NCBI RefSeq assembly: GCF_000424145.1
Contig: NZ_AUJI01000014.1
Location: 1-64,000 of the forward strand
Length of the DNA: 64,000 bases
Direction: 5' to 3'
Source: Butyrivibrio sp. AC2005
GTDB lineage: Bacteria > Bacillota > Clostridia > Lachnospirales > Lachnospiraceae
The number at the start of each line of letters is the position of its first letter. Within the stretch, counting starts at the first letter, position 1. Under the pieces are notes generated by a model. The model saw only the letters and a program-made list of their open reading frames with translations, did no database searches and was not told the origin of the DNA. The translations under genes were made by a program, and so were the position numbers. Shown here in pieces: positions 44,092-62,363 of this stretch.

Positions 44092-47000
44092 TTATTCAGT
44101 TAGTGCAGTAAAAGGATCTTTATCCGGAGCTTTAGGTTCCGTTGCTCTTACAATTCCATCAGAGTCTTCTTTTACCTCGAATTCAAACTTTGTATTTTCT
44201 CCTGCTCCACCGGATGCCGATTCAACAAGGTAATACTTGCCCACACCGAGCTTTCCGATAAAGAACGCGCCTGCATCTCCTGAAATCCAGCTTCCGTCGA
44301 TGTTCTTGGCAATACTCATAAGATCCGCTCTCAGGATGTCAAATTTTGGTCCTCTATACGGCAAGTCTCCACTACCGGTCTTCTTGAGAACAACCTTGCA
44401 TTTTGCTTTTGACAGATTGATAATTCCAAGCTTTTCTATAACTGACTTACCTTTTTTTATGCATTCCTTATCAATCTTCTCATTGTCCTTGTCCATGCGT
44501 ACAAGAACAAATTTTGTAGCTTCATCCTTGTGGTCTTCGTCAAGATCAGACTCTAATTTAACATCTATAGTGAGTCCGGTATCATTCGATACATCCTCCT
44601 TAGCCTGCTTTACATTATCCTCTCCGACATAAAGCTTATAAACATACTGCTTACGATTTTCCTCCACATCAGGATCATCTCCGGCTTTTACAAAATAGTC
44701 ATACTCATATTTTGCATCATCAGGAAGCTTCGTCTCTTTCATGAAATAGATACCTGCAGGAATCTTAAATACGACATTATTTCCCTTTTCATCCTGCGGC
44801 GCGGTTGATACTACCTTTTCTGTAGTGACCTCATTTTCACCTTCCTTTATGATCACTCCACTAAACGGCGTTCCATTATTCTCAAGAACTCCGGCAAAAG
44901 TATTCGCATCTCCGGTCTCCGACGTATCATAGAAAGTGAACTCTGCTCCTGCAAGAGGTTCTCCGTATCCATCAATCTTTTTAAATGAAATATCCACACC
45001 ATTACTGTTAGTAACAAGGAAATACTCACTTTTGGCAACTCCCTGCTCATCATATTCCTTCGGAACAAATTGATCATCATTGCAAGGCTTTATACTGCCA
45101 TAGGCTGTCTTCATCTTCACGTCCTGCTTTTGTACTCTGATATCGCCCTGGTCATCGATGGTAATCTTGAACTGCGGAATATTTTCTGTATCATTATGTC
45201 CCTGATACTCTTCCGGAATTGTCTCCTTGATTATATAGGTATCTGTTTTTTCTGCTTCTGCCTGTGGAATACTGATCTTAAGTAGTCCCTCGGCATTTGT
45301 CTTAGCCACATTAACATATTCCTTATTCTCGTATAAAAGGGAATATTCACCATCCTCATCATCATGAAGGTTATAGAGTCTTAATGCATCGTCATTCGAA
45401 TCCGCCTTGTCCGCTTTAAATATTCTGAATTCTACGTTCTTTATAGGTTCCTTCGTGTCAGTAACCTTTTTAATATTCAGAACAGTCGTCTTCTTCATGG
45501 TATTGATGAAATTCGTAGACTCATTGTCATCCATGTCTACCGCATCCAAAGGCTCTGCATTTGTCTTTACTCTCTTTTCCGGATTCCATGGTTTATACTC
45601 TTCATCATCCGGATCTCCTGTATTTGTCTGGTTAAATGTCACTTCTGCTCCGTATACAATCTCCTTCTCGCTCTCACTATCTTGCAGATGTATTGTGTAA
45701 TTATTTTCTTTGACTATGTAATTTTGATTTCCTTCAATGGGAACAACCCATGTATATGTTATATTTCCATCCTTCTCAGTCTTTTTAATAAAACCATATA
45801 TATTGGTATCAACTTTACCCCTGGTTGTCACCGCATAGAAGGATCCTGCCGAAACCCTGTCAAGCATCGTCAGCATTATCGTATCATCCGTGATACTGGT
45901 AGTATCATTCGCGTTGCTATCCCCATTGCCGGTAGCAGCATTTTTTAGTGTGATATTGAATCTGTTTTTGGCTTTTGCTATCTTTGCCTGTACATCAGCT
46001 TCCGAATCTGTATCTGAAATTGTATCAATATCTGCCGTAGCAGCCTCAACAGCAACCGGATCACCCTTGAATGTCTTTGTGATTGTTACACTACTTACCT
46101 TTTTCGTGATCTTACCGTTTACGTGAAAACCTGCTTTTACATCCGATGACTGATATTTAACAACAAACCATCTGATCAGATAATTTTCAGGCGTAAGCTC
46201 CTCTTTAGGAATTTCCACCTTGGTTCCGGTTCTCTCATCATAATACTTTATCTTCAGGTTAGATTCCTGTAACTTTTTGAAGACAAATTCATCACTTGGC
46301 AAGTATGAAATATGCCATGTTCTATTCTTCTCATTTTCTTCATAGGGATCAACATCGTGCGCCCCATGGAACTTATCATGCACATTCTTGTCAATAACTC
46401 CGTCATCAAAATATCCGGATTCCCCTGCAAGCTCCTCTCTTATCTTTTTGTCAACCTTAGCAGCTTCCTGGGCTCTCTGAGTATAATTTTCCATATCCTG
46501 AATAAAGGTAACAAAATATTTATATTTTCCTTTAGAAGGTGAATTTATCTCATTAGAAAATAATATTTTGTTTGTATCATTATCAGTACTATAGAATGCC
46601 GCAGGTCCCAGATGTACATATTTACTTGAGGTTTCTATAATATAATCTTCGGCACTGATAGGGTTATCTATCTGGTCAGCGTCTGACAATATAGAGAGAT
46701 TTGTTGAAGATTTCGCTGCTGATGTCGTATTTTTCCAATCACATGCCCAACTTGAGACAAGAGTGATTTTTTCATCATGATCATTGTCAAGATCAGTCAG
46801 ATCATATATTCCATTTTCCAAATCATATGGCCTTATTATTGAGCCATCCTCAAGTCTCCATCCCCTAAACAGATATGTGCGTCCATATTCGCCCGGAGTC
46901 TTTTGATAAGTACGAATATATTTATTCCCGAAATATCCATCCGGATCAACTGTTTCCATATAGGAAACATATCTGCCATTATACTCATATCCCACATTAG

Positions 47001-50000
47001 GGAATTTATATGATGTTACAGCTTCACCCTCACGTATCTCTTCATATTTATCCTGACCAATCTTTGTATAGGTTCCGCCAAATTCAGTATCTATTACAGG
47101 TAAGCTTCCACCATCTATTTGACTGCTATACCCCGGATCGCTATCAATAATGTTATATTCTATTGTGAATTTTAGCGCTTCCTCCTTAACTAATTTCCAT
47201 ACTGCCTTTATGGTTATTGTTGTTCCCATCTGTTCAGCTGCGAAATCAACAATATCTCCCGGAATATAGGAGCCATCTGTCAAAGTTCCTGCATATCCTT
47301 TTATTTTCCAGCCAACAAATTCATAAGTATACTTTTTACCTGAATCCATGGAAACATATTTGTCAGCTACCGGATCTTTTAAAGTATATTCATATGCACT
47401 TTCATTTTGTTTAATCGAGACTTCTTCCGTTGTTGCAAGAGGCAGATTATTCTTAAGCCCCTTATCTCCCGTAGCCTTTCCATAAACATAATTTATCGTC
47501 AATACTTTTTGGCTGGAACTGTCTGCAGCCAGATTAAACCAGTCATCATCATAATTTTTAACGACATCAGTATGTGCCTGGAAACTTTTAGCCTTATAAT
47601 TCAAAGAATACTGATACTGACTGTCTTTTGTAGTAATTCTTATTCTTCCGTTCAGTTTGGTTGATATATAGAACATCTGCGGATTATCTGTATAACTTAC
47701 ATTTCCTCTCTTTGCATGTCCATAAGTTATATTCAGATACTTTCCTGCATACTCTCCGTTTTTGATTACTATATAATATCCAAACTTCTCATCCTGCTTT
47801 ATAAATTCAAAAATACCAAGATCATTACCCGAAGTAATTTCACCGTTAGCAACAGTAATTACTTCTCCCTTTATGCATTGTTGAATTCCACCATCTCTGT
47901 TTACCGGAATAATATCATTTCTCATTCCATATTTATTATCTGCAGAATAGATAACGTATTCACCGCTGATATTTACATCCTGAATCAGTAACATCCTGGA
48001 ATTTTCTGAAACATTAAGCATATCCGGTTCTTCAACAATCCTGAACTTATCTGCAGTATCTGACTCCTTAAATACAATACATTCAAGGCAATACCCCGGC
48101 TTATCAAGACTCTCTATTACATGATAGTCTCCCATATCCATTATTCTGAATCTGGCAGCTCTATCCAGTGTACAGTTTGTCTTGACAGACATGGTTGCTG
48201 TATCAGCATCAAATCCTATATAATTCGATCCATTGTGAATCCTATATCCGTTATTGCTAGCTGTGAATGTCCATGCAGTTGCTTCAAACGGCACAGTTGT
48301 GCCATTTCTGGCACCGGTACTGTCATATTTTAAGAACTGACCACCTGCTGTAATATATAAATCCTGACCGTTAAGTGATCTGTCTCCGATATCCGTAGAA
48401 TCTACTGCCTCCGAAAGAACAAGCTTTGTTCCTTCCGCAGACACATTAAGACTACTTACATAATCTGTTGTAGCACCATATCCCAGGTATTTATTTATTT
48501 CATTTGATTTAGCAAGGCATATTCTATGATAGCTGTCCCAATCAGTTACAGTAAACCGGCTTGAATTTTCTTCTGTATCAGGATGCCATCCGGTTATTGT
48601 TATCGGATCTGTTTCCGACAGAGTCACCGTTAAGTAATCTGTCCCGTTAAATATCTGATATCCGTCGCCTTCGGTTTTAAATGACCATGCGGTTGCCTTT
48701 GTACTATCATCCGTTGAGGAAAGTGTTTTTACTCCTTCTTCCTCCTTTATGCTCAAATATCTGATAACAGAAGGCTCTTCGCTATCGTCAACATACGATA
48801 TGTAATATGCGCTACCGTCAAGAGCGGTATCAAAGACATCAAAATTAGGAAGTGAAACTATTGTATAATTCGAAAAGCTATTTGCAGCAAACTCTATTAT
48901 TCCATCATTGACAGCAGATTCTACAGCTTCGACCGAATCTCCAAAATGAACAACCTTGATCTCTTCGTCTTCTTTGCCAATCTCATCTTGGATGAGCTGA
49001 ACTGATACCTTTACATCCTTAGTCGGTTGATAGATATCTCCCGTTTCCTTGTCAACAAAGGATATATCAAAAATTCTGGCCATTCTCACATATTCGCTAT
49101 AAGTTCCAAGCTCCTTGGCACTTTCCTCAATATATCCTGCATATTCTTCATTTTCCACCGTCACTTCAGATACAGTAAGTTCTGCATTCGCAGGTATGCC
49201 GGATGCATTATCATAATCAACGGTTATACTATAAACACTTTCATCTGACGCAATTACTGTCTTCTGTTGTACAGGCTGTACAAGAACAAATACCGAAAAG
49301 CCATCTGTTTCAAAACTTACCTTATCGGCAGGTGTTCTGGCAGCGGGATTGTCATCTGTTTCTCCGTTTTCTTCATCTTCATTGGTAACATCTGCTTCAA
49401 TTATCTGTGGTTCCTCATTTTTCATATGAACTGCAGCCAGTTCATCATCTGCAAACAGTTCATTATTCGTATATAAACCATCAGCTTGAATTTCAACATA
49501 TACAGGTGCTTCCGGCTGGATTTCCTCACCATCCTTTTGAATAGAAAGATCAAAAAGCCTATAGCTTGCAACATCCTCAGCTTCTATTTCCATTGCCTCT
49601 GTAGCATCACTAACAAGCTGTCCATAGTCATAGTCCTCACTATCCTCAGCTATATCTGTAACACAAAGTTCAGCTCCTTCAGGAATATTTGCGTCCGTTC
49701 CAAAGTATACGGCTATTCCCCTATCCTTATCCTCCAGAACGCCTTCATATAATTTTTCTTCCGCATACTCTTTCTCATCTATATTACCTTTTTCTGTTGT
49801 TTCAACAGAATTCTTAGAACTTCCGGATAATATATCTTTTAGTGTATCCTCCCCATTTTCACCTGTAGATTGATTTGTTGTTCCCTCTGCAGTTTCTTCC
49901 TTTTTATTCTCGTTCTCTTCTTTTACTTCTTCAGAATTGGTGGCAGTATTCTCCTGCTGCGCCTCACTTCCGTTTGCATCATTTGCACTCTCCCCTGAAT

Positions 50001-53000
50001 TGTTCGCTGTCTCTTCGGATGAAGCTGCTTCATTCGATGCATTATCCGCATTCTGAGGCTGGCTTTCTCCTGAAGCTTCTTCCTGAGATTGGTTTTCTCC
50101 TGAAGCTTCATTCTGAGACTGACCTTCTCCTGAAGCTTCTTCCTGAGACTGACCTTCTCCCGTAGCTTCTTCCTGAGGCTGATTTTCTCCTGAAGCTTCC
50201 TCCTGAGATTGATTTTCTCCTGAAGCTTCATTTTGGGATTGATCTTCCCCGGAGCCTTCGTTCTGGCTATTTTCCTGTTGTTCTTCCTGCTCAGTTGTAT
50301 TCTCTTCAGGCGCAGCAGACTCTCCATTCGAGGAGTCCTGATTCTCTGTAGTCACATCCTGATCATTCAAATCCTCTTCCGGTATAGGCTCAGTAATAAC
50401 TGCCTCAGCAAGAGCTCTTACAACATCTGAATTCCTAATGTCGGAAGCTACCGCCTTAATAACCGCAAACGGGTCAATTTCATGTCTGGTATCTCTTACT
50501 ATTCCATCAGGATTCTTAACAAATGTTTCTACTATCGGCCAATCACCATAATGTGCATCTACAAAGAATAATTCTGAAAATGATCCTCCTCTTAATTTTG
50601 AAACAAAGGGGAATCCATAAATTGCAGGTTGAAGATTTGAATCGTATCTGTGAGTTTTTTCACCTCGCAAAATAGTAAGCTCCGAAGCAGGAAGCATAAA
50701 CTTGTTATACTCGTACCCCTCATCATTACTTATTTCTGAATCATCAATTGCTTTTATTCCATTTTCATCTTTGACAGTTCCGCCTATGCCCTTTAAATAA
50801 TTGCCATTATCAATCTGATTGATTAATTCAAAATATCTGTCTGCTGCAAGTGATGCTCCACCACTTCCAATAAATCCACCCTTACCTGATACACTTATCG
50901 GTGTATTCGATGTAGATGCAGCCGTTTCAAATAATACCTGTCCAACAGCATAGCAGTTGGTAATATTTCCACCAGAGGCTGTTCCTGCAAAACCTCCTAC
51001 AGTTGAAGCAGATGCAGAGCATGTAGAATAACTATTTTGAATTGTTGCTCCTGCTGATGTCCCGACAAAACCACCTGCGGATGAGCTTCCTATAACATTA
51101 ATTCTTCCTTTTGTACCTTCTGAAGTCTCTTTTCCGTATTTTCCGGGTTTATCATTTTCTGTTATGGTATGTCCACCTGAAAAGCTCTCATCAATTGATG
51201 TATTTGACGCCATACCAACCAGACCACCGGCCATTCCTCCCGTTGATCTGACATATAATGCTGCTGCGCATCCTGTAACTCTTCCACCGTCTATTTCACC
51301 AATAAGTCCCCCGGTTCCTGCTGATCCGGTGATTTCCAACCCTTCATCAGGATAATCTACGGTAGTTGCTACTGCTTCGCCGGAAGTAGCAAGTGTTCCA
51401 TTATAGGCAAGCACATTCTTTATTTCGTTGCTTCCTGTGCCCTTACCAATCAGTGCTCCTGCAGCCCCACCTGATGATTTGACACAAAGGTTCTTTATTA
51501 CAACTCCGTCTATATTACAGCTGTCTGCTTCTCCGATAATTCCGGCTGTATTTCCACTTCCGTTAATTGTTTCTTCCGGAATATTCTCATTGCTGTTATA
51601 TGCAAAAACATTCTTAACGGTTGAACCTGTCAGTCTTCCCGCAAGCATTCCTGCACTATTATTTGCAACCGTATTATTTATCTTAAACTCAGTAATAACA
51701 AGATTAGCAATTATTATGTTATTCTGATCACCAAATAAACCGATTTTTCTATTGGTTCCTAATATGGCATAACTGTCAGAAGTATCTACTTTCAGACGTC
51801 TTATTACATGATAATCATTCTGAGTGTAATCTGAATTTGAATTTTTCTCTTCAGGATTAACTGTTTCAACATCTGCCACTGAAGTTATTGCATTAACAGT
51901 GTTGTTCTCTGTCCTGTCGCCATTGAAGGATCTGAGTTCGGAATTAGTTATGGGAGTAAAGTTTCTAACCTGACCATTACCTTTGGGATATTTATTCTCA
52001 TCTTCAGCCCAATCGATATCATCCAGTAACACTGCCGCCATCGAAGAAGCCTCTCCGCCTGCTGCCATTCTGCTCTCAACCTTGGAAAAATCTTTTGCAA
52101 GATTCTGTAAGTGACGGGGATAAATGATTTGTGCAACACCAATGCCATTATCCACATCAAAGTCTGCATACAGGCTGTTTTCAACATTTGATACCGCCGT
52201 GGCTCCACGTGTAAGCTTTGAAACCTCCGAGCTGCTATTGTCCGTATCCCATACCTTAAAGGAAATGCTTATATCATCACCCGGTGTAATCTGACTTCCC
52301 AAATTACCACCGCTCTTTGTTTTTAACAGATTAAACTGCATATCCTTATCAAGTGAGTCAAGCTTAATATAACCTATAAGTCCATACTTTTCAGATGAAT
52401 CCCTTTGTGTTCCAAACGCTGATACCGGAATAGTTGTCTGTCCTGAACCGGTGGTATAAACAATTCCTGTCGTTCCATCTGTTTCAAGATAATTACTATC
52501 AGTATCCCCGCTATAGTTCTGCCATCTTATTTCATTAGCTGAAATATCTATTCCCTCGGAGCTGTTTCCACCCGAAGACTTTTCTCCCTTTACTGTCAGT
52601 TTGAATGCAATATTTGTTTTGCCTTCAATCTGTTTTCTTGTATTCTCATCTATTGTTATCTTTACAACACCTAATAAATCACGACTGTTAATTATCCAGG
52701 CTCCTGCTGAGAGACCTCCTTTCACATTAGCCCCAAGGAGTCCGGTTGCTCCTTCAGAATAATATCCGACATATGCATTATAAGCCGCAATTCTGTCCGC
52801 AGCTGTTCCCCTGAGAGGAGAGCCCAGGTCTGTTCCTGCAAGAGCTGCTATACTGGTTCCTGCCTTTTCCGGCTCATCGCAAACCACAGCAGCATATACA
52901 TCAAGACTTACAGGATCATATTCAATAACGATGGATGTTCCTCCACGCTCGGCGCTGAAAAATTTATCGTTAAATGCCTTATCTTTAAAAAACAGACTTG

Positions 53001-53367
53001 CTGCTTCAGAACCATCATCCGATGTAAGGTAAGCCAGCTGCGTATTTCCCCCAATGGAGAATTTGTTAGCATTGTATAATTCCTTAACTACACTTATTGT
53101 CTGTCCTTCGGCATTTACCTCATCACTCTTTTCCTGTGCAACAAACAGTTCCATCATCCTGCTTTGAGCAGCATAATAAACAGCCTCAGCTCTTTTATCA
53201 AGGTGAGACTGTCGCGTATTCTTTATTAGTTTATCGCCCACAATAAAGCCTATTGCAGACAAAACAAGCAGTATTGCTACTACCACAAGCAGTTCTACAA
53301 TACTAAATCCCCGTGCAGCTCTCTTTCTGCTGCCCATTACGTTTTTCACACTATTTACTTTTTTCAT
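44092..53367 (-). CDS. Giant modular type IV pilin (prepilin N-terminus fused to a large adhesin)
   Basis: 3091 residues. Residues 1-45 are a class III signal: basic leader RKRAARG, then FSIVELLVVVAILLVLSAIG with Glu5 after the predicted G/F cleavage. Further on: GLUG-type repeats at about 550-815 (GGFVGTSAGATIQNSYS); seven 10-residue E/Q/S-rich repeats at 1034-1103; two similar modules at about 1210-1290 and 1375-1460; two W-F-G-Y-NG modules at about 1520-1640 and 1665-1760; InlB-like repeats near 2012 and 2160; and at least three SpaA/Cna-type domains (from about 2620, 2790 and 2985; VDISFKKIDGYGEPLAGAEF). There is no LPXTG and no C-terminal membrane helix. Last gene of the pilus operon; probably a tip or surface adhesin. 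Confidence 0.9.
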   Translation of the reverse strand: MKKVNSVKNVMGSRKRAARGFSIVELLVVVAILLVLSAIGFIVGDKLIKNTRQSHLDKRAEAVYYAAQSRMMELFVAQEKSDEVNAEGQTISVVKELYNANKFSIGGNTQLAYLTSDDGSEAASLFFKDKAFNDKFFSAERGGTSIVIEYDPVSLDVYAAVVCDEPEKAGTSIAALAGTDLGSPLRGTAADRIAAYNAYVGYYSEGATGLLGANVKGGLSAGAWIINSRDLLGVVKITIDENTRKQIEGKTNIAFKLTVKGEKSSGGNSSEGIDISANEIRWQNYSGDTDSNYLETDGTTGIVYTTGSGQTTIPVSAFGTQRDSSEKYGLIGYIKLDSLDKDMQFNLLKTKSGGNLGSQITPGDDISISFKVWDTDNSSSEVSKLTRGATAVSNVENSLYADFDVDNGIGVAQIIYPRHLQNLAKDFSKVESRMAAGGEASSMAAVLLDDIDWAEDENKYPKGNGQVRNFTPITNSELRSFNGDRTENNTVNAITSVADVETVNPEEKNSNSDYTQNDYHVIRRLKVDTSDSYAILGTNRKIGLFGDQNNIIIANLVITEFKINNTVANNSAGMLAGRLTGSTVKNVFAYNSNENIPEETINGSGNTAGIIGEADSCNIDGVVIKNLCVKSSGGAAGALIGKGTGSNEIKNVLAYNGTLATSGEAVATTVDYPDEGLEITGSAGTGGLIGEIDGGRVTGCAAALYVRSTGGMAGGLVGMASNTSIDESFSGGHTITENDKPGKYGKETSEGTKGRINVIGSSSAGGFVGTSAGATIQNSYSTCSASASTVGGFAGTASGGNITNCYAVGQVLFETAASTSNTPISVSGKGGFIGSGGASLAADRYFELINQIDNGNYLKGIGGTVKDENGIKAIDDSEISNDEGYEYNKFMLPASELTILRGEKTHRYDSNLQPAIYGFPFVSKLRGGSFSELFFVDAHYGDWPIVETFVKNPDGIVRDTRHEIDPFAVIKAVASDIRNSDVVRALAEAVITEPIPEEDLNDQDVTTENQDSSNGESAAPEENTTEQEEQQENSQNEGSGEDQSQNEASGENQSQEEASGENQPQEEATGEGQSQEEASGEGQSQNEASGENQSQEEASGESQPQNADNASNEAASSEETANNSGESANDANGSEAQQENTATNSEEVKEENENKKEETAEGTTNQSTGENGEDTLKDILSGSSKNSVETTEKGNIDEKEYAEEKLYEGVLEDKDRGIAVYFGTDANIPEGAELCVTDIAEDSEDYDYGQLVSDATEAMEIEAEDVASYRLFDLSIQKDGEEIQPEAPVYVEIQADGLYTNNELFADDELAAVHMKNEEPQIIEADVTNEDEENGETDDNPAARTPADKVSFETDGFSVFVLVQPVQQKTVIASDESVYSITVDYDNASGIPANAELTVSEVTVENEEYAGYIEESAKELGTYSEYVRMARIFDISFVDKETGDIYQPTKDVKVSVQLIQDEIGKEDEEIKVVHFGDSVEAVESAVNDGIIEFAANSFSNYTIVSLPNFDVFDTALDGSAYYISYVDDSEEPSVIRYLSIKEEEGVKTLSSTDDSTKATAWSFKTEGDGYQIFNGTDYLTVTLSETDPITITGWHPDTEENSSRFTVTDWDSYHRICLAKSNEINKYLGYGATTDYVSSLNVSAEGTKLVLSEAVDSTDIGDRSLNGQDLYITAGGQFLKYDSTGARNGTTVPFEATAWTFTASNNGYRIHNGSNYIGFDADTATMSVKTNCTLDRAARFRIMDMGDYHVIESLDKPGYCLECIVFKESDTADKFRIVEEPDMLNVSENSRMLLIQDVNISGEYVIYSADNKYGMRNDIIPVNRDGGIQQCIKGEVITVANGEITSGNDLGIFEFIKQDEKFGYYIVIKNGEYAGKYLNITYGHAKRGNVSYTDNPQMFYISTKLNGRIRITTKDSQYQYSLNYKAKSFQAHTDVVKNYDDDWFNLAADSSSQKVLTINYVYGKATGDKGLKNNLPLATTEEVSIKQNESAYEYTLKDPVADKYVSMDSGKKYTYEFVGWKIKGYAGTLTDGSYIPGDIVDFAAEQMGTTITIKAVWKLVKEEALKFTIEYNIIDSDPGYSSQIDGGSLPVIDTEFGGTYTKIGQDKYEEIREGEAVTSYKFPNVGYEYNGRYVSYMETVDPDGYFGNKYIRTYQKTPGEYGRTYLFRGWRLEDGSIIRPYDLENGIYDLTDLDNDHDEKITLVSSWACDWKNTTSAAKSSTNLSILSDADQIDNPISAEDYIIETSSKYVHLGPAAFYSTDNDTNKILFSNEINSPSKGKYKYFVTFIQDMENYTQRAQEAAKVDKKIREELAGESGYFDDGVIDKNVHDKFHGAHDVDPYEENEKNRTWHISYLPSDEFVFKKLQESNLKIKYYDERTGTKVEIPKEELTPENYLIRWFVVKYQSSDVKAGFHVNGKITKKVSSVTITKTFKGDPVAVEAATADIDTISDTDSEADVQAKIAKAKNRFNITLKNAATGNGDSNANDTTSITDDTIMLTMLDRVSAGSFYAVTTRGKVDTNIYGFIKKTEKDGNITYTWVVPIEGNQNYIVKENNYTIHLQDSESEKEIVYGAEVTFNQTNTGDPDDEEYKPWNPEKRVKTNAEPLDAVDMDDNESTNFINTMKKTTVLNIKKVTDTKEPIKNVEFRIFKADKADSNDDALRLYNLHDDEDGEYSLLYENKEYVNVAKTNAEGLLKISIPQAEAEKTDTYIIKETIPEEYQGHNDTENIPQFKITIDDQGDIRVQKQDVKMKTAYGSIKPCNDDQFVPKEYDEQGVAKSEYFLVTNSNGVDISFKKIDGYGEPLAGAEFTFYDTSETGDANTFAGVLENNGTPFSGVIIKEGENEVTTEKVVSTAPQDEKGNNVVFKIPAGIYFMKETKLPDDAKYEYDYFVKAGDDPDVEENRKQYVYKLYVGEDNVKQAKEDVSNDTGLTIDVKLESDLDEDHKDEATKFVLVRMDKDNEKIDKECIKKGKSVIEKLGIINLSKAKCKVVLKKTGSGDLPYRGPKFDILRADLMSIAKNIDGSWISGDAGAFFIGKLGVGKYYLVESASGGAGENTKFEFEVKEDSDGIVRATEPKAPDKDPFTALTE
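50059..50268 (-). repeat. Seven 30-bp coding repeats in the giant pilin
   Basis: Seven in-frame units encode decapeptides such as SQEEASGENQ. They form a Glu/Gln/Ser/Gly-rich, unstructured linker between the pilin-plus-GLUG part and the distal modules. Repeat number may vary between strains. Confidence 0.9.
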
Positions 53368-53415: not shown

Positions 53416-53985
53416 TTAATTGTCTTCTTTTTGTTCTCTGGGCACATCGATGACATATTCCCCTTTTGTCAACTCCCTGCCCTTTTTATCAGACACCGTA
53501 ATAGCTACTTTAAACTTCCAATATGGATTATCACCTTCCTTTGTCTTCTCCGGTGAATTAATAACTGCATTTACCCTTAATTCTTCAGCATATTTTTCTG
53601 ATCCATCCCCCAAAATCGGATAATATTGTTTATTCCCATCTATGCTTTCAAGATAAATAGTATTATCTCCCGTTACAAGCTTACATCTGCCTCCAATAAG
53701 GCCACTTCCATCTACAAATGTGCTTCCATCCTCATCAAATCCACTTGCCGTAGTGAGTTCGGCTCTGACAAAGTCCATCAATGTAGACATTATCATCTGT
53801 GACTTTGACCGGTTTGTACTCTCTCTATACTGGTCAGCTGCCAGTCTCATTGATTGTGATACAAGAAAAGTTGCAAGCAACAAAATCAGGACAGCAAGAA
53901 GCATTTCAATAATGGAAAAGCCTTTACTGCCTGAATTCCTTATTTTTTTTTGTAATTGTTTACCTGATTTCTTTATAATTCTCAT
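53416..53985 (-). CDS. Minor prepilin, PilW/PilJ-like
   Basis: 189 residues. Prepilin motif SKGFSIIEMLLAVLILLLAT with Glu5, after a 23-residue basic leader. Globular part of about 140 residues containing two beta-rich segments (GSGLIGGRCKLVTGDNTIYL). Probably primes pilus assembly or sits at the tip with its neighbours. It directly precedes the giant pilin gene. Confidence 0.82.
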   Translation of the reverse strand: MRIIKKSGKQLQKKIRNSGSKGFSIIEMLLAVLILLLATFLVSQSMRLAADQYRESTNRSKSQMIMSTLMDFVRAELTTASGFDEDGSTFVDGSGLIGGRCKLVTGDNTIYLESIDGNKQYYPILGDGSEKYAEELRVNAVINSPEKTKEGDNPYWKFKVAITVSDKKGRELTKGEYVIDVPREQKEDN

Positions 53986-54247: not shown

Positions 54248-54892
54248 TTAATTACCGTTTTTATCTTTTACTCTTGAGGTAACATACATACCATCCTTTG
54301 ACCAGGATATGTAGGTTACTTCTTTTTTCTGGAACTTTCCGTTTGAATCCTTGGGTTTTAAATAGTCATCCTCCTTAACAGTCACCGCTGTTCCCGGTAT
54401 AGTCAGTGTAAGGGGATAATCGGTTACTGCATTCTCCATCCAGACATCTACTGTTATGGTATAGTCCTTGCTCATGGTTATTCTTCCCTTGAGCTCAGCA
54501 TTTTTTAGCAATTCTGTTCCGGAATAACTAAAGGTTATGTTCTTTGTCCCCCCGCCGGCTTTTGCCATTTCCTTAACACTTATTCCAAGTTCATCCTTCA
54601 TGCCTTCTACCGCAGTAGTTCCGGCGCTGTTACTTTCCTGTCCCTCATATTCTTTATCATAGACAAAAGAAGCATTATCTTCCATGCAGTTCTGAATAAG
54701 TCTTATTGCTTCCGTAGTTGCAGAATATGCAATTTCGACCTTTCTTTCCTCTGCAGTCCTCTCTGCGTTAAGTATTGCTGCATTAACTATAGCAATAGCC
54801 ACAAATGCCACGATCAAAAATACGACAAGTGCCAGTATTACAGACGCTCCCTTATTATTAAATTTCTCCCGAAAACACTTTTTTCTTCTCAT
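54248..54892 (-). CDS. PilX-like minor pilus protein
   Basis: 214 residues. N-terminus NNKGASVILALVVFLIVAFVA resembles the PilX type, in which the pilin helix begins after G/A; Glu5 is absent. C-terminal half is beta-rich with DYTITVDVWMENAV. Such proteins often promote assembly or aggregation in other systems; its role here is inferred from position. Confidence 0.72.
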   Translation of the reverse strand: MRRKKCFREKFNNKGASVILALVVFLIVAFVAIAIVNAAILNAERTAEERKVEIAYSATTEAIRLIQNCMEDNASFVYDKEYEGQESNSAGTTAVEGMKDELGISVKEMAKAGGGTKNITFSYSGTELLKNAELKGRITMSKDYTITVDVWMENAVTDYPLTLTIPGTAVTVKEDDYLKPKDSNGKFQKKEVTYISWSKDGMYVTSRVKDKNGN

Positions 54893-54906: not shown

Positions 54907-55539
54907 TTAAAACCCAAATATCGCACTATCACTTGAGCTGTTATTTTTCTCCGACTCATCCTCCGGCAGTTCCTTATCAGGAGTTCCGCCCTGCATTGTC
55001 TCATAAAAATCTCCGGTAAGACTAACTGTTACTTCATCATCATTTATATTTGTGCCGAACAAAACCGGTGAAGCCACAACATTATTAACAAGGCAGCGTA
55101 TCTCACTTGATTCCAGCTTCTCAATTATTTCCTCTGCCTCTGTAAAATTTTTTACAGTAAATCCCATCTCAAATTCTCTTCTTATGAGATCACCATTTCT
55201 TGTCAGTTTTGTAAACTTCACAGAATAATTAATTGTATCGCTTAAAAGAGCATGAAGGAAATCCAGTTCATCTTTTCCGGCATTGTAGCTTGGAAGATAA
55301 CTAAGTGACTTAACTTCATCTCCATTTAAAGCCTCTGACATATCATTGATTCTTTTAAGCTTGTTCTGAACAACCTCCAGCTCCGTTGTGAGAGCATTCT
55401 GTTCCTGTATCGCAGACTGTATTCCCTGCTCTATCGGAGTTGATACCAAAAGATAGTATAATGCCCCAAGAATTATGATAAACAGTATTACCAACAGTAT
55501 TTTTTCACTTTTCGTAAAAGCCTTATTTAGTATATTCAC
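54907..55539 (-). CDS. PilO-like type IV pilus assembly protein
   Basis: 210 residues from a GTG start at 55539; AAGGAG lies 7 nt upstream, within the end of the preceding gene. One membrane helix (KILLVILFIIILGALYYLLV, about 13-32), coiled coil (QNALTTELEVVQNKLKRI), then a ferredoxin-like domain. Tail is disordered (PEDESEKNNSSSDS). Pairs with PilN in the inner-membrane alignment complex. Confidence 0.82.
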   Translation of the reverse strand: MNILNKAFTKSEKILLVILFIIILGALYYLLVSTPIEQGIQSAIQEQNALTTELEVVQNKLKRINDMSEALNGDEVKSLSYLPSYNAGKDELDFLHALLSDTINYSVKFTKLTRNGDLIRREFEMGFTVKNFTEAEEIIEKLESSEIRCLVNNVVASPVLFGTNINDDEVTVSLTGDFYETMQGGTPDKELPEDESEKNNSSSDSAIFGF

Positions 55540-55540
55540 T

Positions 55541-57115
55541 TTATTTCTCCTTATCAGAAGACTTCGTTATAAGATACACTTTAATCTCAGCATTTACACC
55601 TGATTCAATGGCTTCTGTCGTTATATCATCTATAATTGTTTTTGCGGACACAACTGAACAGCTCTCAATAATGTCCTGCTCCCTCAAGAAATTAGTAAGT
55701 TTGCTTACCTCCTCCAAAGTGCGCGCCGTCAGGTCTATTGTCATTGTCCCCTTTACCGTATCCATGTAGGTAACCTTCATTCCCTGACTGCCTATCAGAT
55801 CGACAATACTTGCGGCTTCAAGTCTGCTTACCCTTGTGCGTTCTTCTTCATTCATTGTATCCCACGTATAATGACTATATTCTACCGTAAGAGTCTCTGC
55901 ACTGTTGATTTGCTCATACTGTGCATCAATCTGTTCCTGTAAAAGTGCAGCCTTATGTCTCTCATTTTCAAGGACTCGCATTCTGTCTACAAATGTAAAT
56001 TTGCCTACTATGAGAAAAGCGACAACTAAAGCAGCCACAATTCCCAATATCACCCAAATATTCTTTTTGTCCTTTTCTCCGGCAGAAGCCAGATTACTAT
56101 TGGTTTCAACCCCAACTGCATCGCTCAATATGATTCCGACTGAACCATACGTAACATTTATTTCCTTCTGCTTGCTATACTTGGGGAATAATTCATCCAT
56201 TGTCTGGACATTTTTATCAATTCGAGTCTTTAGCATTTCTACCAATGGCTCTGTCATCGCACCCGTACCGCAAAGGACCACATCATTCAGCCTTGCTGTC
56301 ATATCTGATGTCTCATAGAAATTCAGCCCTTTCAGAATTTCTATTGATATATCTTTGTATGCATTTACTGCAGCAGGAAGCTTGTCACAATCGTTATATC
56401 TGTTTCTGAGATATGTTACAGCCAGATGCGAATCAACATTCAGCTCATCCGCTATGGCATTTATCACGTTGTCCTCTCCTATATCCAGCATCTGTGACAA
56501 CTTGAATTCGCCATTTTTAAAAACCATCATTCGGATATTACGGCGACCAATATCCATAAAGCAGCGCTCTTTTTTAACTTCCTCCTCTACTCCAAGAGCA
56601 TTTAGAAGCGCCTCATACACGGAAGTTTCCGGCAATGCTTTAACAAGCTTCAAACCGGCAAGCTTCAAGGTCTCACGTAATCCCGTAATAAGATCCAGCG
56701 GAACTGCATATGCAAGAAGGCTTATACTGTTTGATTCCTCACCGCCTTTTTCATCAATTCTCTTTACATAGTCATAAACATACTGATTCAATTCCCCCTG
56801 AATGAAGTCCTTAAACTCAAAGGGGATGTTATATCTGATCTGTTCATCAGAAAGCCTGGGGGTTGTAATCTTACGTACAAATATTTCGCTGTCTGCTATT
56901 ACATAAGCTGCATTTTTGCACTTAATTTCCTTATCTTTTATCTGCTCTTTTAAAAACTCAGCAAAAAGATGATGAGAAATAATTTTATTACCCTCAACTA
57001 TATTATCCGGCAATTCTTCCCAATATGATTTGCGGACTACCCCGCCTCTCATCAAGGTCATTGCCAGTCTTCCATGTGTGACGCTTATTCCTAAAACAGC
57101 CTGCTTATTTGCCAT
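55541..57115 (-). CDS. PilM-PilN fusion protein
   Basis: 524 residues. About 1-320: PilM-type actin-like ATPase (SVTHGRLAMTLMRGG; CFMDIGRRNIRMMVFKNGEF near 190-210; VVLCGTGAMTEPLVEML near 275). About 350-372: a membrane helix (IWVILGIVAALVVAFLIVG). About 375-515: coiled coil and a PilN-type periplasmic domain (ERHKAALLQEQIDAQYEQI). The two are separate genes in most type IV pilus operons; here one frame without a stop between. GGGAGA precedes the ATG. Confidence 0.85.
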   Translation of the reverse strand: MANKQAVLGISVTHGRLAMTLMRGGVVRKSYWEELPDNIVEGNKIISHHLFAEFLKEQIKDKEIKCKNAAYVIADSEIFVRKITTPRLSDEQIRYNIPFEFKDFIQGELNQYVYDYVKRIDEKGGEESNSISLLAYAVPLDLITGLRETLKLAGLKLVKALPETSVYEALLNALGVEEEVKKERCFMDIGRRNIRMMVFKNGEFKLSQMLDIGEDNVINAIADELNVDSHLAVTYLRNRYNDCDKLPAAVNAYKDISIEILKGLNFYETSDMTARLNDVVLCGTGAMTEPLVEMLKTRIDKNVQTMDELFPKYSKQKEINVTYGSVGIILSDAVGVETNSNLASAGEKDKKNIWVILGIVAALVVAFLIVGKFTFVDRMRVLENERHKAALLQEQIDAQYEQINSAETLTVEYSHYTWDTMNEEERTRVSRLEAASIVDLIGSQGMKVTYMDTVKGTMTIDLTARTLEEVSKLTNFLREQDIIESCSVVSAKTIIDDITTEAIESGVNAEIKVYLITKSSDKEK

Positions 57116-57128
57116 TAGTTCTCCCCTC

Positions 57129-57920
57129 TCATAGCATTCGTAAATACCAGTCTGTTATATCGTTGCCAATTATAAGTAATATGTATGATGCTGTTGCTAT
57201 AGCAGGTCCAAAAGGAAACTCTTTTGTCGCCTTTGGATCTATAATTTTTCTCGCCATTGCAAACATTAGTCCTAATACACAGGACAAAATAACAAGTTCA
57301 TAAGCTCCTGCAAATCCAAGATACAATCCCAGTATTGCAAATAGTTTTATATCCCCGCCTCCAAGACTATCCCTTTTGAGGATTCTGTCCATTATAAGGC
57401 TGAGTGTAAGCATTACTGCCCCTGCAATAACTCCTGCCAATAACCCGAAACCCAAATCCTTTATGCTCCAGTCTCCTGTTACAACCTCGAGCAGAGAAAA
57501 AAATACCCAGTTAAAAAAAGCTGTTATAAGAAGACCATTCGGTATTTCAAGTATCTCAAGATCAACCAATGCCATAGCAAAAAGGCAACCGGTCAAAACC
57601 CAGTTTTTACAGAACAGAAGCATATCGGGCTTTGTAAAAGCATAGAGGAAAACCGATAAAAACATAAATATAAGCTCTGTAACCGGATATCTTACAGATA
57701 TTTTTTTGCCACAATATCTGCACTTCCCTCTGCTTAGCACATAACTCAAAACAGGAATCAGATCAATCGCCCCAAGCTTATGTCCGCAATCCCTGCAGCG
57801 GCTTCTGTCTTTGACAAAATCTTCATTTCTTACAATCCGCATAGCCATACAATTCAGAAATGACCCAAATATAAGTCCAAATACTGCTATACAGGCTATG
57901 TTGTATACCCCTTCTGTCAA
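57129..57920 (-). CDS. pilD: Prepilin peptidase PilD (type IV leader peptidase)
   Basis: 263 residues, about seven membrane segments. N-terminal methylase domain with two CxxC pairs (CRDCGHK, CRYCGKK) that bind zinc. Catalytic aspartates are in VDLEILEIPNG near 140 and in GGGDIKLFAILG near 190 (GxGD motif). Cleaves prepilins at the Gly and methylates the new N-terminus. TTG start; AGGGG 8 nt upstream; 2 nt from the end of pilC. Confidence 0.92.
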   Translation of the reverse strand: MTEGVYNIACIAVFGLIFGSFLNCMAMRIVRNEDFVKDRSRCRDCGHKLGAIDLIPVLSYVLSRGKCRYCGKKISVRYPVTELIFMFLSVFLYAFTKPDMLLFCKNWVLTGCLFAMALVDLEILEIPNGLLITAFFNWVFFSLLEVVTGDWSIKDLGFGLLAGVIAGAVMLTLSLIMDRILKRDSLGGGDIKLFAILGLYLGFAGAYELVILSCVLGLMFAMARKIIDPKATKEFPFGPAIATASYILLIIGNDITDWYLRML

Positions 57921-59174: not shown

Positions 59175-60227
59175 TTAGTTCATGTTTCTGGAAACGAAGT
59201 CCTTATTTACTGCATAATATAGTGCGCTGTCTCTTGATATCAGTCCTTTTCTTACCAGCATCACTATTGACTGATCCATTGTCTGTCCGCCTATTTCGGC
59301 ACTTGTAGCAACTGCATTTGCAATCTGCGGAGTATTCCCTGTTCTGATAAGGTTTCTGATTGCATCAGTAACAATCATGTACTCTGCTGCAAGCGCTCTT
59401 CCACCGTCTTTTTTCTTGATAAGCTGTTGTGTAAGTACCGCCTGCAGTACCATTGAGAGCTGAAGCCTTATCTGCTGCTGAGCCCCCTCAGGAAATACCT
59501 GAACCATACGATCTATGGAATCCGAAGCACTTCCTGTATGAAGCGTTCCAAAGACAAGATGTCCTGTTTCTGCAGCTGTTATAGCCGTTTCTATCGTATC
59601 TCTGTCTCGCATTTCTCCGATAAGAATAACATCAGGATCTTCTCTTAATGAAGCTCTAAGCCCCATCGAAAAACTCTCTGTATCTTTTCCTATTTCTCTT
59701 TGATTTATTGCGCAAAGATCCGGCGTATACACATACTCAATCGGGTCTTCCAGAGTGACTATATGTTTCTTATAATGATGATTTATATCATCAAGTATTG
59801 CTGCCAGTGTAGTGGATTTACCGGATCCTGTTTCACCTGTTACAAGCACAATTCCCTTATGAAGCTTCGGAAGATCAAGCACTCCCAAAGGAAGTCCTAA
59901 CGTTCCCAACTCCGGTATATACTCTGACAATATTCTAAGCGCAAGTGAAGGTACTTCACGCTGCTTAAAAAGATGTATACGACATCTGCTTCCTGCAAAG
60001 GTATCTGCAGCATCGAATTCGCCAACTTTTAGAAATTCATTAAAAGCCTCTTCTGTTTTGGTTAGGCTTTTCGCTATACTAATGCACTCTTCTCTGGTAA
60101 CCGGGGTATCTACAATATTCTCCAGCTCACCATTTTTCCTAACCTTTGGCGGAATCCCACATATAATATGTATGTCTGATGCACCTTCAGCCTTTGCTCC
60201 GGCAACCATTTCATCTAATGTCATCAT
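59175..60227 (-). CDS. pilT: Pilus retraction ATPase PilT
   Basis: 350 residues. Walker A GETGSGKSTT near 130, Asp box DPIEYVYTPDL, Walker B ILIGEMRDRDTIETAIT near 200, His box HLVFGTLHT, and the PilT-specific AIRNLIRTGNTPQI near 290. Drives retraction, so the pili are predicted to support twitching or pulling. Located between pilB and pilC in the operon. Confidence 0.95.
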   Translation of the reverse strand: MMTLDEMVAGAKAEGASDIHIICGIPPKVRKNGELENIVDTPVTREECISIAKSLTKTEEAFNEFLKVGEFDAADTFAGSRCRIHLFKQREVPSLALRILSEYIPELGTLGLPLGVLDLPKLHKGIVLVTGETGSGKSTTLAAILDDINHHYKKHIVTLEDPIEYVYTPDLCAINQREIGKDTESFSMGLRASLREDPDVILIGEMRDRDTIETAITAAETGHLVFGTLHTGSASDSIDRMVQVFPEGAQQQIRLQLSMVLQAVLTQQLIKKKDGGRALAAEYMIVTDAIRNLIRTGNTPQIANAVATSAEIGGQTMDQSIVMLVRKGLISRDSALYYAVNKDFVSRNMN

Positions 60228-60257: not shown

Positions 60258-61973
60258 CTACATATTTTCATTTGTTACTCTTAATACTTCATAAACCGTA
60301 GTCACACCTTCTTCAATAAGCTTTACACCCGACTCTTTAAGTGATACGAAATCCGAGTCTTCCTTTTTCAGCTCTTTTTCTATCTCGCCTCTTCCGGCTT
60401 TATGATATATAAGTTCTGCAATCTGAGGTGTCACCATCATTATCTCAAATATGGCAATTCTTCCGGAATATCCTGTATTGAAGCAGTGTTGACATCCTTT
60501 ACCGAACTTAAACTTTGTTCCGGGTTTTATTTTTACTCCAAGTCTTTCAACTTCATCTCTTTGAGGCTCATATTCCTCTGCACAATACGGACAAACCCGT
60601 CTGACAAGTCTCTGAGAAATAACTCCTCTAAGAGTGGCGGAAATCAGATATGGCTCAACACCCAAATCCTCAAGTCTGTCAATTGCACCCACTGCGTCGT
60701 TAGTATGAATTGTACTCATAACAAAACGTCCTGTAAGGGCCGCTCTCAGACATATCTCTGCTGTTTCTCCGTCACGTATCTCACCTACAGATACTATATC
60801 GGGATCCTGACGAAGAATCGCTCTTAGTCCATTTGCAAAGGTCATATTGGTCTTGGTATTTACCTGAACCTGATTAAGACCATCAAGGTTATATTCTATA
60901 GGATCCTCCAGTGTAACCAGATTAACATCCCTTGTATTAAGCTCATTAAGCATCGCATACATGGTAGTGGTTTTACCGGATCCTGTAGGACCTACAAGAA
61001 GCATTACACCATTTTTATAGTGTATCAGTTTCTCATACTTCTCCATATCATCTGAGCGAAGTCCCAGCATTTCTTTATCAATTTCTGTATTGGATTTATC
61101 CAGAAGACGACATACTATTTTCTCTCCCCACGCTATCGGTAGAGTAGATACACGCATGTCTATACTTTTATTAAGAACACTGACAGCGAATCTGCCATCC
61201 TGGGGAATTCTTTTTTCTGCCACATCCATTCCGGACATAGTCTTTATTCTCGCCAATACAGCTGCAGTAACTTCATTTGGCACTTTCAGAATATCCCTTA
61301 GGACACCATCAATACGCATCCTGACATCCATATCTGTTTCTCTTGGCTCAAAGTGAATATCAGATGCACGTTCTGCAACCGCTCTCTCAATAATGGAATT
61401 TACAAGACGAATAGTGGGAGCACTTTCACTGTCCCTACTTAATGAATTTGAGGTTATGACATAGTCAAAACCTGATAATGGTGACTCTGTCCCACCATCA
61501 TGTCCGATTTCTTTCTTATAGTCAGCTATTGCCTGCTTTGCATTCTCATTGCCATACAATGTATTTATGGCTCTCTCCACGGCAACATGCGTCGAAATTA
61601 GCGGTACAATTTTTAAATTTGTCGCCTTACGCACTTCATCAAGCGCATAATAATTAAGGGGATCATCCATAGCCACATAAAGCGTATCCCCTTCCTTTTG
61701 TACCGGAACAAGGTGATTCTGCTTAGCAGTATTACGCTGGACAAGTTTTGCCATCTCCTGCTTAATACTTACCTTCGCAAGATCTATATAGTCGACCTCC
61801 AACTGAATTGCCAGAGTCTGTGCAATATCATCCGGAGTAACTATTTTATTATTTATAAGAACTTCACCAAGTTTTTCATGCGTTTGTTTCTGCATTTCAA
61901 GTGCATACTGCAACTCATTCTCATTGATCAGACCTCTCTCTATGAGCAGGTCACCGATTCTCTTCTTTGGCAT
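60258..61973 (-). CDS. pilB: Pilus extension ATPase PilB
   Basis: 571 residues. N-terminal MshEN domain (RIGDLLIERGLINENELQYA), Walker A GPTGSGKTTT near 325, Walker B SVGEIRDGETAEI near 390, and the zinc knuckle CPYCAEEY...CQHCFNTGY near 465-500. Powers pilus assembly. MshEN domains can bind c-di-GMP, which may connect to the GGDEF sensor at 39115-42939; that is inference. Confidence 0.95.
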   Translation of the reverse strand: MPKKRIGDLLIERGLINENELQYALEMQKQTHEKLGEVLINNKIVTPDDIAQTLAIQLEVDYIDLAKVSIKQEMAKLVQRNTAKQNHLVPVQKEGDTLYVAMDDPLNYYALDEVRKATNLKIVPLISTHVAVERAINTLYGNENAKQAIADYKKEIGHDGGTESPLSGFDYVITSNSLSRDSESAPTIRLVNSIIERAVAERASDIHFEPRETDMDVRMRIDGVLRDILKVPNEVTAAVLARIKTMSGMDVAEKRIPQDGRFAVSVLNKSIDMRVSTLPIAWGEKIVCRLLDKSNTEIDKEMLGLRSDDMEKYEKLIHYKNGVMLLVGPTGSGKTTTMYAMLNELNTRDVNLVTLEDPIEYNLDGLNQVQVNTKTNMTFANGLRAILRQDPDIVSVGEIRDGETAEICLRAALTGRFVMSTIHTNDAVGAIDRLEDLGVEPYLISATLRGVISQRLVRRVCPYCAEEYEPQRDEVERLGVKIKPGTKFKFGKGCQHCFNTGYSGRIAIFEIMMVTPQIAELIYHKAGRGEIEKELKKEDSDFVSLKESGVKLIEEGVTTVYEVLRVTNENM

Positions 61974-62003: not shown

Positions 62004-62363
62004 TTATGGTTTAACCCATTCGGTTATTACACTCTGATCTTCTGCAATTGTAATTAACAGGTACTTTCCCTGATGCTCCTTTGAGGATCCATATGGCACG
62101 ACAGTTGTCTTCGCTTTCAGTGGATCAACAAACTTCTTGTTTTCAGCATCATAAACAGCCTCTGTGAACAGATCATTCTGCACAAGCTCAAGCGATGCCT
62201 TACGTTCTGCAGCAATAACTATCTCATTATCCATGTCTTCCAACGAATTATTAATATTATTACGCGCAATTCTTACAACAATAATTGCAACAAGTGCAAG
62301 TGCAATAAGCGCTATAAGAACCACTACTCTGGATAATCCTTTACTGCCTTTTAATTTCATCAT
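62004..62363 (-). CDS. Atypical pilin-like membrane protein without Glu5
   Basis: 119 residues. SKGLSRVVVLIALIALALVA resembles a prepilin segment with Gly before the hydrophobic run, but Arg lies at position 3 and there is no Glu5. C-terminal domain of about 65 residues with DQSVITEWVKP. Placed between the major pilin and pilB. It may be an unprocessed membrane protein or a special pilin; cleavage by PilD is uncertain. Confidence 0.65.
   Translation of the reverse strand: MMKLKGSKGLSRVVVLIALIALALVAIIVVRIARNNINNSLEDMDNEIVIAAERKASLELVQNDLFTEAVYDAENKKFVDPLKAKTTVVPYGSSKEHQGKYLLITIAEDQSVITEWVKP

What the first reader, a model, noticed from the sequence alone, without database searches (positions are those of the whole stretch)
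44092..53367. A 3091-residue modular type IV pilin at the end of the pilus operon
Seen: one uninterrupted frame begins with a normal class III prepilin leader and Glu5-containing helix, then carries GLUG repeats, an acidic repeat linker, duplicated modules, InlB-like repeats and SpaA/Cna-type domains, with no LPXTG or C-terminal anchor. Known: modular pilins with added adhesive domains occur in Gram-positives (for example PilB and PilC of Streptococcus sanguinis) but are far smaller. Inference: PilD cleaves it, and the pilus displays a tip adhesin of unusual length, mounted by its pilin helix. Intramolecular isopeptide bonds in the SpaA-type domains would strengthen it under pulling by PilT.
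Basis: partly seen in the sequence, partly recalled or inferred. Interest (0 to 1): 0.88.

Follow-up and report, generated by a model that had tools for sequence, protein, structure and literature searches.

The report
Giant adhesive type IV pilin
A Butyrivibrio-like bacterium encodes a 3,091-residue protein that begins like a pilus subunit and continues as a long chain of probably sticky domains, and comparable giants of up to about 4,500 residues recur in other members of its bacterial family.

Summary

New: a missed 76-residue pilin (53997-54227) and a neighbour without Glu5, so the giant sits in an HIJK-like set. Giants recur: 38 of 397 family genomes list prepilin-led frames of at least 1,500 aa, the window's included (list cut off); of 20 fetched, chosen mostly for size, all 20 start as prepilins, up to 4,537 aa. 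Listed rows from two small diderm samples show none.

Best reading: a tip-mounted modular adhesin. Cleavage, assembly, tip position, ligand and isopeptide bonds are inferred.

The parts
44092..53367 (-). giant modular prepilin, 3,091 aa (mature 3,071 aa, 336 kDa calculated)
53308..53367 (-). prepilin leader, residues 1-20, ending G20
   Evidence: sequence; N_methyl match 16-40
53137..53307 (-). pilin alpha-1 helix, residues 21-77, with Glu5 (E25)
   Evidence: model helix 23-77; G20, F21, E25 invariant in 10 of 10 rows of A1 and 10 of 10 rows of A4, both including the window's protein
52879..53136 (-). probable pilin head, residues 78-163 (strands and short helices)
   Evidence: model, pLDDT block means 48-74; no fold match obtained for this part
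52246..52713 (-). second beta domain, residues 219-374
   Evidence: model only
50512..52122 (-). GLUG-type beta-solenoid, residues about 416-952 (YPRHLQNL ... HYGDWP)
49768..50340 (-). acidic Glu/Gln/Ser-rich linker, residues 1010-1200
49276..49734 (-). ZU5-like module copy 1, residues 1212-1364
   Evidence: profile; Foldseek to ankyrin ZU5A-ZU5B, E 1.5e-4 but rmsd 15.9 over both domains: a suggestion
48850..49248 (-). ZU5-like module copy 2, residues 1374-1506
47521..48828 (-). two, probably three beta-trefoils, residues about 1514-1949
46723..47415 (-). two InlB/Flg_new-like segments, residues about 1985-2215 (unconfirmed)
   Evidence: FxGW...W pattern; no Pfam match at E<=1
44998..45486 (-). 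SpaA domain 1, residues about 2628-2790
44398..44994 (-). SpaA domain 2, residues about 2792-2990
44095..44397 (-). C-terminal SpaA-like domain 3, residues 2991-3091; Lys and Glu kept, no conserved terminal Asn
53416..53985 (-). minor pilin, 189 aa (G^FSIIE), PilV/J-like
   Evidence: weak matches below cut-offs
   Evidence: weak ComGF/ComGE matches below cut-offs
54248..54892 (-). pilin-like protein without Glu5, 214 aa (G^ASVILAL), K-like
   Evidence: sequence; weak matches below cut-offs; no Pfam match
54907..55539 (-). PilO-like inner-membrane protein
   Evidence: T2SSM match below cut-off; position
55541..57115 (-). PilM with an extra C-terminal part, perhaps PilN, 524 aa
   Evidence: PilM_2, pilM; PilN part inferred
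57129..57920 (-). PilD prepilin peptidase
   Evidence: A24_N_bact 103.5 bits, Peptidase_A24 43.2 bits
57922..59145 (-). PilC platform protein
   Evidence: T2SSF
59175..60227 (-). PilT retraction ATPase
   Evidence: TIGR01420 411.9 against cut-off 319.1
60258..61973 (-). PilB extension ATPase with MshEN domain
   Evidence: T2SSE and MshEN; best NCBIfam model type_IV_pilB, 576 against cut-off 675.65
62004..62363 (-). 119-aa pilin-like protein without Glu5
   Evidence: sequence; same position in L004, L005
62392..62748 (-). major pilin PilA
   Evidence: N_methyl 30.5 bits; 'major' inferred

Best explanation
It is a genuine giant modular type IV pilin that works as a tip-mounted adhesive arm. Steps: (1) the prepilin is inserted in the membrane with its 3,000-residue C-terminus outside (inferred); (2) PilD, encoded in the same operon, cuts after Gly20 (motif shown, cutting inferred); (3) with three small pilin-like proteins encoded just before it, one lacking Glu5, it forms the initiation complex at the pilus tip, which PilB then extends (gene set shown, assembly inferred from HIJK/PilABC); (4) the outer part carries a GLUG-type beta-solenoid, a flexible acidic spacer, ZU5-like modules, two or three beta-trefoils that most likely bind glycans, and SpaA domains, two of which largely keep the residues for isopeptide bonds (folds supported, ligand and bonds inferred); (5) PilT pulls the bound surface in (PilT shown, action inferred). 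The target is plausibly plant fibre, mucus or other cells (inferred; type IV pili mediate adhesion to cellulose in Ruminococcus albus, PMC6916266 passage). The same plan, with other modules, recurs across the family.
For: Prepilin motif over curated cut-offs; Gly-1, Phe1 and Glu5 invariant in 10 of 10 rows of A1 and 10 of 10 of A4; model helix of 55 residues; operon with PilD, PilB, PilT, PilC; same gene order in L004, L005 and L040-L044 as far as the stretches reach, with one extra 543-aa frame in L044 (L004 and L041 share a contig length and are taken as one strain, so six loci); p76 found in 16 of 22 loci searched (missed in L050, L051, L053, L055, L056, L057); pilin-like neighbour without Glu5, as at T4F tips in PMC10191384 (passages); solenoid and trefoil folds, plus a sub-cut-off Pfam hint of a CCL2-like lectin at 1691-1735; no LPXTG in this protein and no membrane-type tail in the fetched giants; 38 of 397 family genomes with giants listed.
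Against: No wet evidence of cleavage, export or presence in pili. The pilin head gave no fold match of its own and the model of residues 1-1010 has mean pLDDT 52. N_methyl is only just over its cut-off here, and of 14 other giants scanned with Pfam six fall short of it (L071, L072, L074, L084, P0010, P0011), though their motif is readable. Two of the three small neighbours are called pilins on motif and weak model matches alone. No paper found describes a pilin of this size being assembled. In L046, L047 and L059 the corresponding pilin is only 670-675 aa, so the giant form is not essential to such operons. Fold does not prove glycan binding: many trefoils are growth factors.
Confidence: 0.65

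Rival explanations
1. It uses the pilin helix only as a membrane anchor: a giant surface protein, cleaved or not by PilD, that stays in the membrane and is not polymerised into pili.
For: Its size is without precedent in the papers read; the modelled pilin head is weak.
Against: Glu5, tied to pilus assembly (PMC3244431 passage; that anchoring does not need it is recalled), is invariant in 10 of 10 rows of A1 and of A4; it stands beside three pilin-like genes.
Confidence: 0.17
2. It is polymerised, but sits along or at the base of the filament as a bulky side arm, not at the tip.
For: Raynaud et al. [quoted passage not shown]
Against: The gene lies in a set of four pilin-like genes, one lacking Glu5, like tip complexes. 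The long flexible linker here comes after the solenoid, not next to the pilin part.
Confidence: 0.12
3. It is an artefact of assembly or a chance fusion of a pilin gene with surface-protein pieces.
For: Mosaic domain make-up.
Against: Nine relatives of 2,991-3,825 aa and giants in many other genera, with open frames in the fetched ones.
Confidence: 0.01
4. It is a carrier or pseudopilin of a secretion-type filament, releasing effector modules rather than adhering.
For: Some relatives have a separate protein, signal peptide seen by eye, after a shorter pilin (L046, L047).
Against: PilT, not part of type II secretion (recalled), is in the operon; no enzyme family in this protein by Pfam at E<=1.
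Confidence: 0.05

Closest known systems
PilB and PilC of Streptococcus sanguinis (modular type IV pilins; PMC8179133, PMC9934059, passages read)
   Same: Class III prepilin N-terminus, extra adhesive domains not specific to pili, monoderm host, part of a minor-pilin set.
   Different: PilB is 50.5 kDa; here 336 kDa with about ten grafted domains, several tentative. PilB carries vWA and PilC an Ig-like and a ConA-like lectin module; here GLUG-type solenoid, ZU5-like, beta-trefoil and SpaA.
PilC/PilY1 tip adhesin of diderm type IV pili (PMC8179133, PMC10191384 passages)
   Same: Large, modular, tip-borne adhesin (here by inference).
   Different: PilY1 is not a pilin and has its own beta-propeller carrier domain; here the carrier is a pilin in the same chain.
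ComZ (minor pilin with a beta-solenoid module, named in PMC8179133 passage; its being from Thermus is recalled)
   Same: Beta-solenoid joined to a pilin module.
   Different: ComZ is much smaller (recalled); many more modules follow here.
Sortase-anchored SpaA/Cna-type adhesins of Gram-positive bacteria (recalled)
   Same: SpaA domains with isopeptide residues.
   Different: No LPXTG or C-terminal membrane segment; pilin helix at the other end.
3n6z and M26 IgA1 proteases (fold matches; GLUG label recalled)
   Same: GLUG-type beta-solenoid.
   Different: No protease family found in this protein by Pfam at E<=1.

Membership tests
modular type IV pilin | class III signal peptide with Gly at -1 and Glu at +5 followed by a hydrophobic stretch | tested here: met
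   N_methyl 21.8 bits over 21.2; TIGR02532 19.3 over 16.3
modular type IV pilin | pilin module: long alpha-1 helix and beta head | tested here: inconclusive
   helix 23-77 and following strands in the model, but low confidence and no separate fold match to a pilin
modular type IV pilin | at least one further domain not specific to type IV pili | tested here: met
   SpaA over cut-off; solenoid and trefoil folds
modular type IV pilin | polymerised into the filament after PilD processing | not testable with these tools
   PilD, PilB, PilC present in the operon
HIJK-like tip complex of minor pilins | cluster of four genes with pilin-like N-termini, one lacking Glu5 | tested here: met
   54248-54892 (no Glu5), 53997-54227, 53416-53985, 44092-53367, read from sequence
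HIJK-like tip complex of minor pilins | assignment to H, I, J, K family models | tested here: inconclusive
   only matches below cut-offs to PilV, ComGE/F and GspK models
SpaA/Cna B-type isopeptide domain | Lys, Glu and Asn (or Asp) in order and conserved | tested here: met
   domain 2: Lys and Glu 9 of 9, Asn 7 and Asp 2; domain 1: Lys and Asn 9 of 9, Glu 7 of 9 with the other two one column off (P0008, P0010); P0009 left out as misaligned; domain 3 keeps Lys and Glu 10 of 10 but no Asn, so it does not meet it
SpaA/Cna B-type isopeptide domain | covalent Lys-Asn bond formed | not testable with these tools
   needs mass spectrometry or a structure
sortase-anchored cell-wall adhesin | C-terminal LPXTG, hydrophobic segment, basic tail | tested here: not met
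   no motif in the last 80 residues of P0001
PilC/PilY1 | PilY1-type beta-propeller domain | tested here: not met
   not among the four Pfam families at E<=1; a remote propeller in the unassigned parts is not excluded
InlB-repeat (Flg_new) protein | PF09479 match | tested here: inconclusive
   no match at E<=1 in this protein; matches in relatives P0010 and L084
beta-trefoil lectin | trefoil fold | tested here: met
beta-trefoil lectin | sugar binding | not testable with these tools
   many trefoils in the same list are not lectins

The most novel reading that the evidence does not exclude
Giant tip pilins of 2,000-4,500 residues are a recurrent component, not described in the papers I could search, of type IV pili in the Lachnospiraceae: a monoderm answer to PilY1, in which pilin and adhesin are one chain, made possible because there is no secretin pore to pass. 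Related operons carry what looks like a split form (a 670-675-aa pilin followed by a 1,247-1,360-aa protein), so fusion and fission of carrier and adhesin could be followed. A bolder add-on: the C-terminal SpaA domain, with Lys and Glu but no Asn, could accept a strand from another protein and cross-link to it.
Probability: 0.48. Interest if true: 0.82.

Novelty: new variant of a known kind. Interest (0 to 1): 0.7.

Why it matters
Modular pilins help explain how one simple filament acquires many functions, but those described are small. Pilins of 250-480 kDa (rough, from 2,500-4,500 residues) would set a new limit for what the pilus motor can export and carry, raise the question of how such an arm crosses the Gram-positive wall, and point to a long-range adhesion device in gut and rumen bacteria. 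Domain-based censuses are likely to miss them: 8 of 14 giants scanned have no Pfam family over its cut-off other than N_methyl, and 6 of 14 miss the N_methyl cut-off.

Tried and rejected
Sortase anchoring: no motif in this protein; among the 19 proteins, P0008 (LPLTG, inside the last SpaA domain), P0015 and P0017 (IPASG) have a look-alike in the last 80 residues. Artefact of assembly: rejected by relatives. Solved-structure sequence search with the C-terminal 472 residues gave one match at E 0.033, judged chance. Foldseek for the pilin head gave nothing usable; the VIA-align lists were filled by the solenoid and the trefoils, so absence of a pilin there says nothing. In one search the lysenin rows and the ankyrin rows lie at large rmsd; the ZU5 reading is kept only as a suggestion. 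A fourth Cna-like domain around residues 2425-2590 is seen by eye only and not claimed. Promoter and terminator scans were at the shuffled level (53 found, 56.2 expected; 13 found, 10.5 expected) and are not used. The ZU5-like link between giants and the second protein of the split operons is weak: 2 of 4 proteins, best domains 14.7 and 14.3 bits, E about 1e-5 in a four-protein database; L046 gave none. The family listing was cut off, so 38 is what the list shows; 18 of the 38 were not fetched. Three of the 38 rows show a stop inside the match: G160 and G402 were fetched and are open, G385 was not fetched. Long frames whose match starts further in (for example G152 4,281 aa, G220 3,713 aa; G835, G625) were not checked for a prepilin start and not counted. 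Phylum-wide (398 genomes) only two listed prepilin-led frames of at least 1,500 aa besides the window's own appear (G721, and G313 of the same family), against the idea that such giants are common in the whole phylum. The 1,660 clusters are not shown to be prepilins; the 120 listed are close kin of P0014 (93-100% identical, 2,348-2,371 aa). Papers: no hit for type IV pilin with GLUG, modular pilins with isopeptide, GLUG motif with pili, or giant, tip adhesin and minor pilin; the listings (titles and starts of abstracts) showed no such giants. Passages only were read of PMC8179133, PMC9934059, PMC10191384, PMC3244431 and PMC6916266. Supplementary data sets could not be read.

Full report
What is there. 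The frame named in the finding lies on the minus strand, 44092-53367, and runs for 3,091 codons without a stop. The window is part of a 5.13 Mb genome in 74 contigs. Named relatives are Butyrivibrio strains, and genome G020, which the tool places in the window's genus, has a contig of the same length as one of Butyrivibrio sp. LC3010 (368,724 bases).

N-terminus. The prepilin motif passes the curated cut-offs of Pfam and NCBIfam, but not by much (21.8 over 21.2 bits, 19.3 over 16.3). Conservation makes it convincing: Gly20, Phe21 and Glu25 (Glu5 of the mature protein) are invariant in the 10 rows of alignment A1 (close relatives) and in the 10 rows of A4 (divergent). The AlphaFold2 model of residues 1-1010 (10 sequences, mean pLDDT 52) gives a helix at 23-77, about the length of a pilin alpha-1 (approx. 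50 residues in PMC9934059, passage), then strands. The head found no match of its own, so the pilin fold is supported but not shown.

Surroundings. The operon holds PilA, a 119-aa pilin-like protein without Glu5, PilB with an MshEN domain, PilT, PilC, PilD, a PilM protein with an extra C-terminal part, a PilO-like protein and the minor pilins. Upstream of it the 214-aa protein has a pilin-like start without Glu5. So four pilin-like genes, one without Glu5, stand together, as in the HIJK set at the tip of type IV filaments, capped by a subunit lacking Glu5 (PMC10191384, passages). This is the main ground for a tip position. The family models assign these small proteins only weakly. The same order is seen in L004, L005 and L040-L044 as far as the stretches reach; L044 has an extra 543-aa frame between pilM and pilD.

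How common. A search with residues 1-480 (candidates 1,700-5,400 aa by the tool's length rule) gave 18 further proteins, nine of them 2,991-3,825 aa and nine of 2,365-2,440 aa. A profile search gave 1,660 clusters at E<=1e-10 among 7,992 scored; the 120 listed are close kin of one another, so breadth is not shown by it. Among 145 relatives, 26 genomes had a match to the first 262 residues, the window's own included. Among 397 genomes of the family, 155 had a match to the N-terminal profile A4; in the listed rows 38 genomes (window's own included), in 36 genera by the tool's numbers, have a frame of at least 1,500 aa whose match begins at the prepilin motif (hand count, recounted; listing cut off). 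I fetched 20 of these 38, mostly the longest frames: all 20 giants begin as prepilins (18 by pattern, L081 and L088 read) and are 2,555-4,537 aa long. The pattern requires Glu5, so this is not an independent test of it. None shows a sorting signal: two have LPDAA near the end (L073, L080), and no tail reaches a hydropathy above 0.93. Other pilin or pil genes were recognised beside the giant in 18 of the 20 loci; in L081 and L082 none were by this test (L082 has a second giant).

Control. With the bare N_methyl family, 60 genomes of the family gave 156 matches (sum of the per-genome table) in 32 genomes, and the listed rows hold nine frames of at least 1,500 aa, in nine genomes. The same search gave 153 matches in 17 genomes of the phylum of Massilia sp. 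Root418, Pseudomonadota, and 155 in 16 genomes of the phylum of an Acidobacteriota MAG, with no listed frame of that size; the largest listed were 479 and 1,182 aa. In all three some matches were not listed, the samples are small, and a family is compared with phyla. That both phyla are diderm is recalled. The result fits the idea that such arms are confined to bacteria without a secretin, but in the phylum-wide sample of 398 genomes giants were also rare outside the family, so family history may explain it as well.

Split form. In L046, L047 and L059 the pilin at this place is 670-675 aa and is followed by a protein of 1,360, 1,247 and 1,247 aa. In L046 and L047 this has a signal-peptide-like start (by eye) and Flg_new repeats; L059's was not scanned with Pfam. 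A weak match to the ZU5-like module is seen in L047 and L059. I read this as carrier and adhesin in two chains.

Comparison with what is known. Raynaud et al. (PMC8179133, passages) counted more than 1,200 modular pilins in 264 architectures and named an 860-residue protein with 12 repeats as the most extreme multi-domain case; Pelicic (PMC6916266, passages) calls minor pilins above 50 kDa very large. The protein here is of that kind but between six and seven times the mass of S. sanguinis PilB. Of 14 other giants scanned with Pfam, 8 have no family over its cut-off other than N_methyl and 6 miss the N_methyl cut-off, which may be how an InterPro census passed them by. Ten searches of the open library found no paper on such giants; supplements could not be read.

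Verdict. A real, conserved, giant modular prepilin; most likely a tip adhesin; new variant of a known kind. Shown: the frame, motif, conservation, operon, set of pilin-like genes, solenoid and trefoil folds in models, recurrence. Inferred: cleavage, polymerisation, tip position, glycan binding, isopeptide bonds, role of PilT.

Noticed in passing
window 39115-42939 (-): 1,274-aa protein with an ECF-S-like N-terminus (70 bits, below the model's cut-off of 180) and a GGDEF diguanylate cyclase domain (134.6 over 37.4), second gene after the giant; PilB of the operon carries a c-di-GMP-type MshEN domain (NF053729 67.6 over 38), so c-di-GMP may control the pilus.
   Followed up: partly
window 62004-62363 (-): 119-aa pilin-like protein (G^LSRVVVLIAL) without Glu5 between pilA and pilB, no NCBIfam or Pfam match at the limits used, present in place in L004 and L005. 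Role unknown.
   Followed up: partly
window 55541-57115 (-): PilM domain followed by a hydrophobic segment and an extra part in one chain; looks like a PilM-PilN fusion.
   Followed up: no
L001 (G000:C5:22428-22502): A second PilA-like pilin elsewhere in the genome, 76% identical to the operon's PilA over 116 residues.
   Followed up: no
L046 8517-14641, L047 1563-7404, L059 698-6502: Possible split form: 670-675-aa pilin followed by a 1,247-1,360-aa protein.
   Followed up: partly
L082 5003-19899: Two giant prepilins in tandem: 3,220 aa, and a second cut off by the stretch at 1,598 aa whose frame is given as 3,167 aa.
   Followed up: no
L053 810-10169: A 3,119-aa prepilin whose arm is made of DUF285 and leucine-rich repeats (eight DUF285 stretches, E 1.1e-125): a quite different module set on the same carrier.
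   Followed up: partly
L045, L048, L049, L050, L051, L052 (frames of 668-751 aa before the giant): In a second group of the genus a frame of 668-751 aa stands just before the giant; the one scanned (L045) starts like a secreted protein by eye and has no Pfam match. Whether they are one family was not tested.
   Followed up: no
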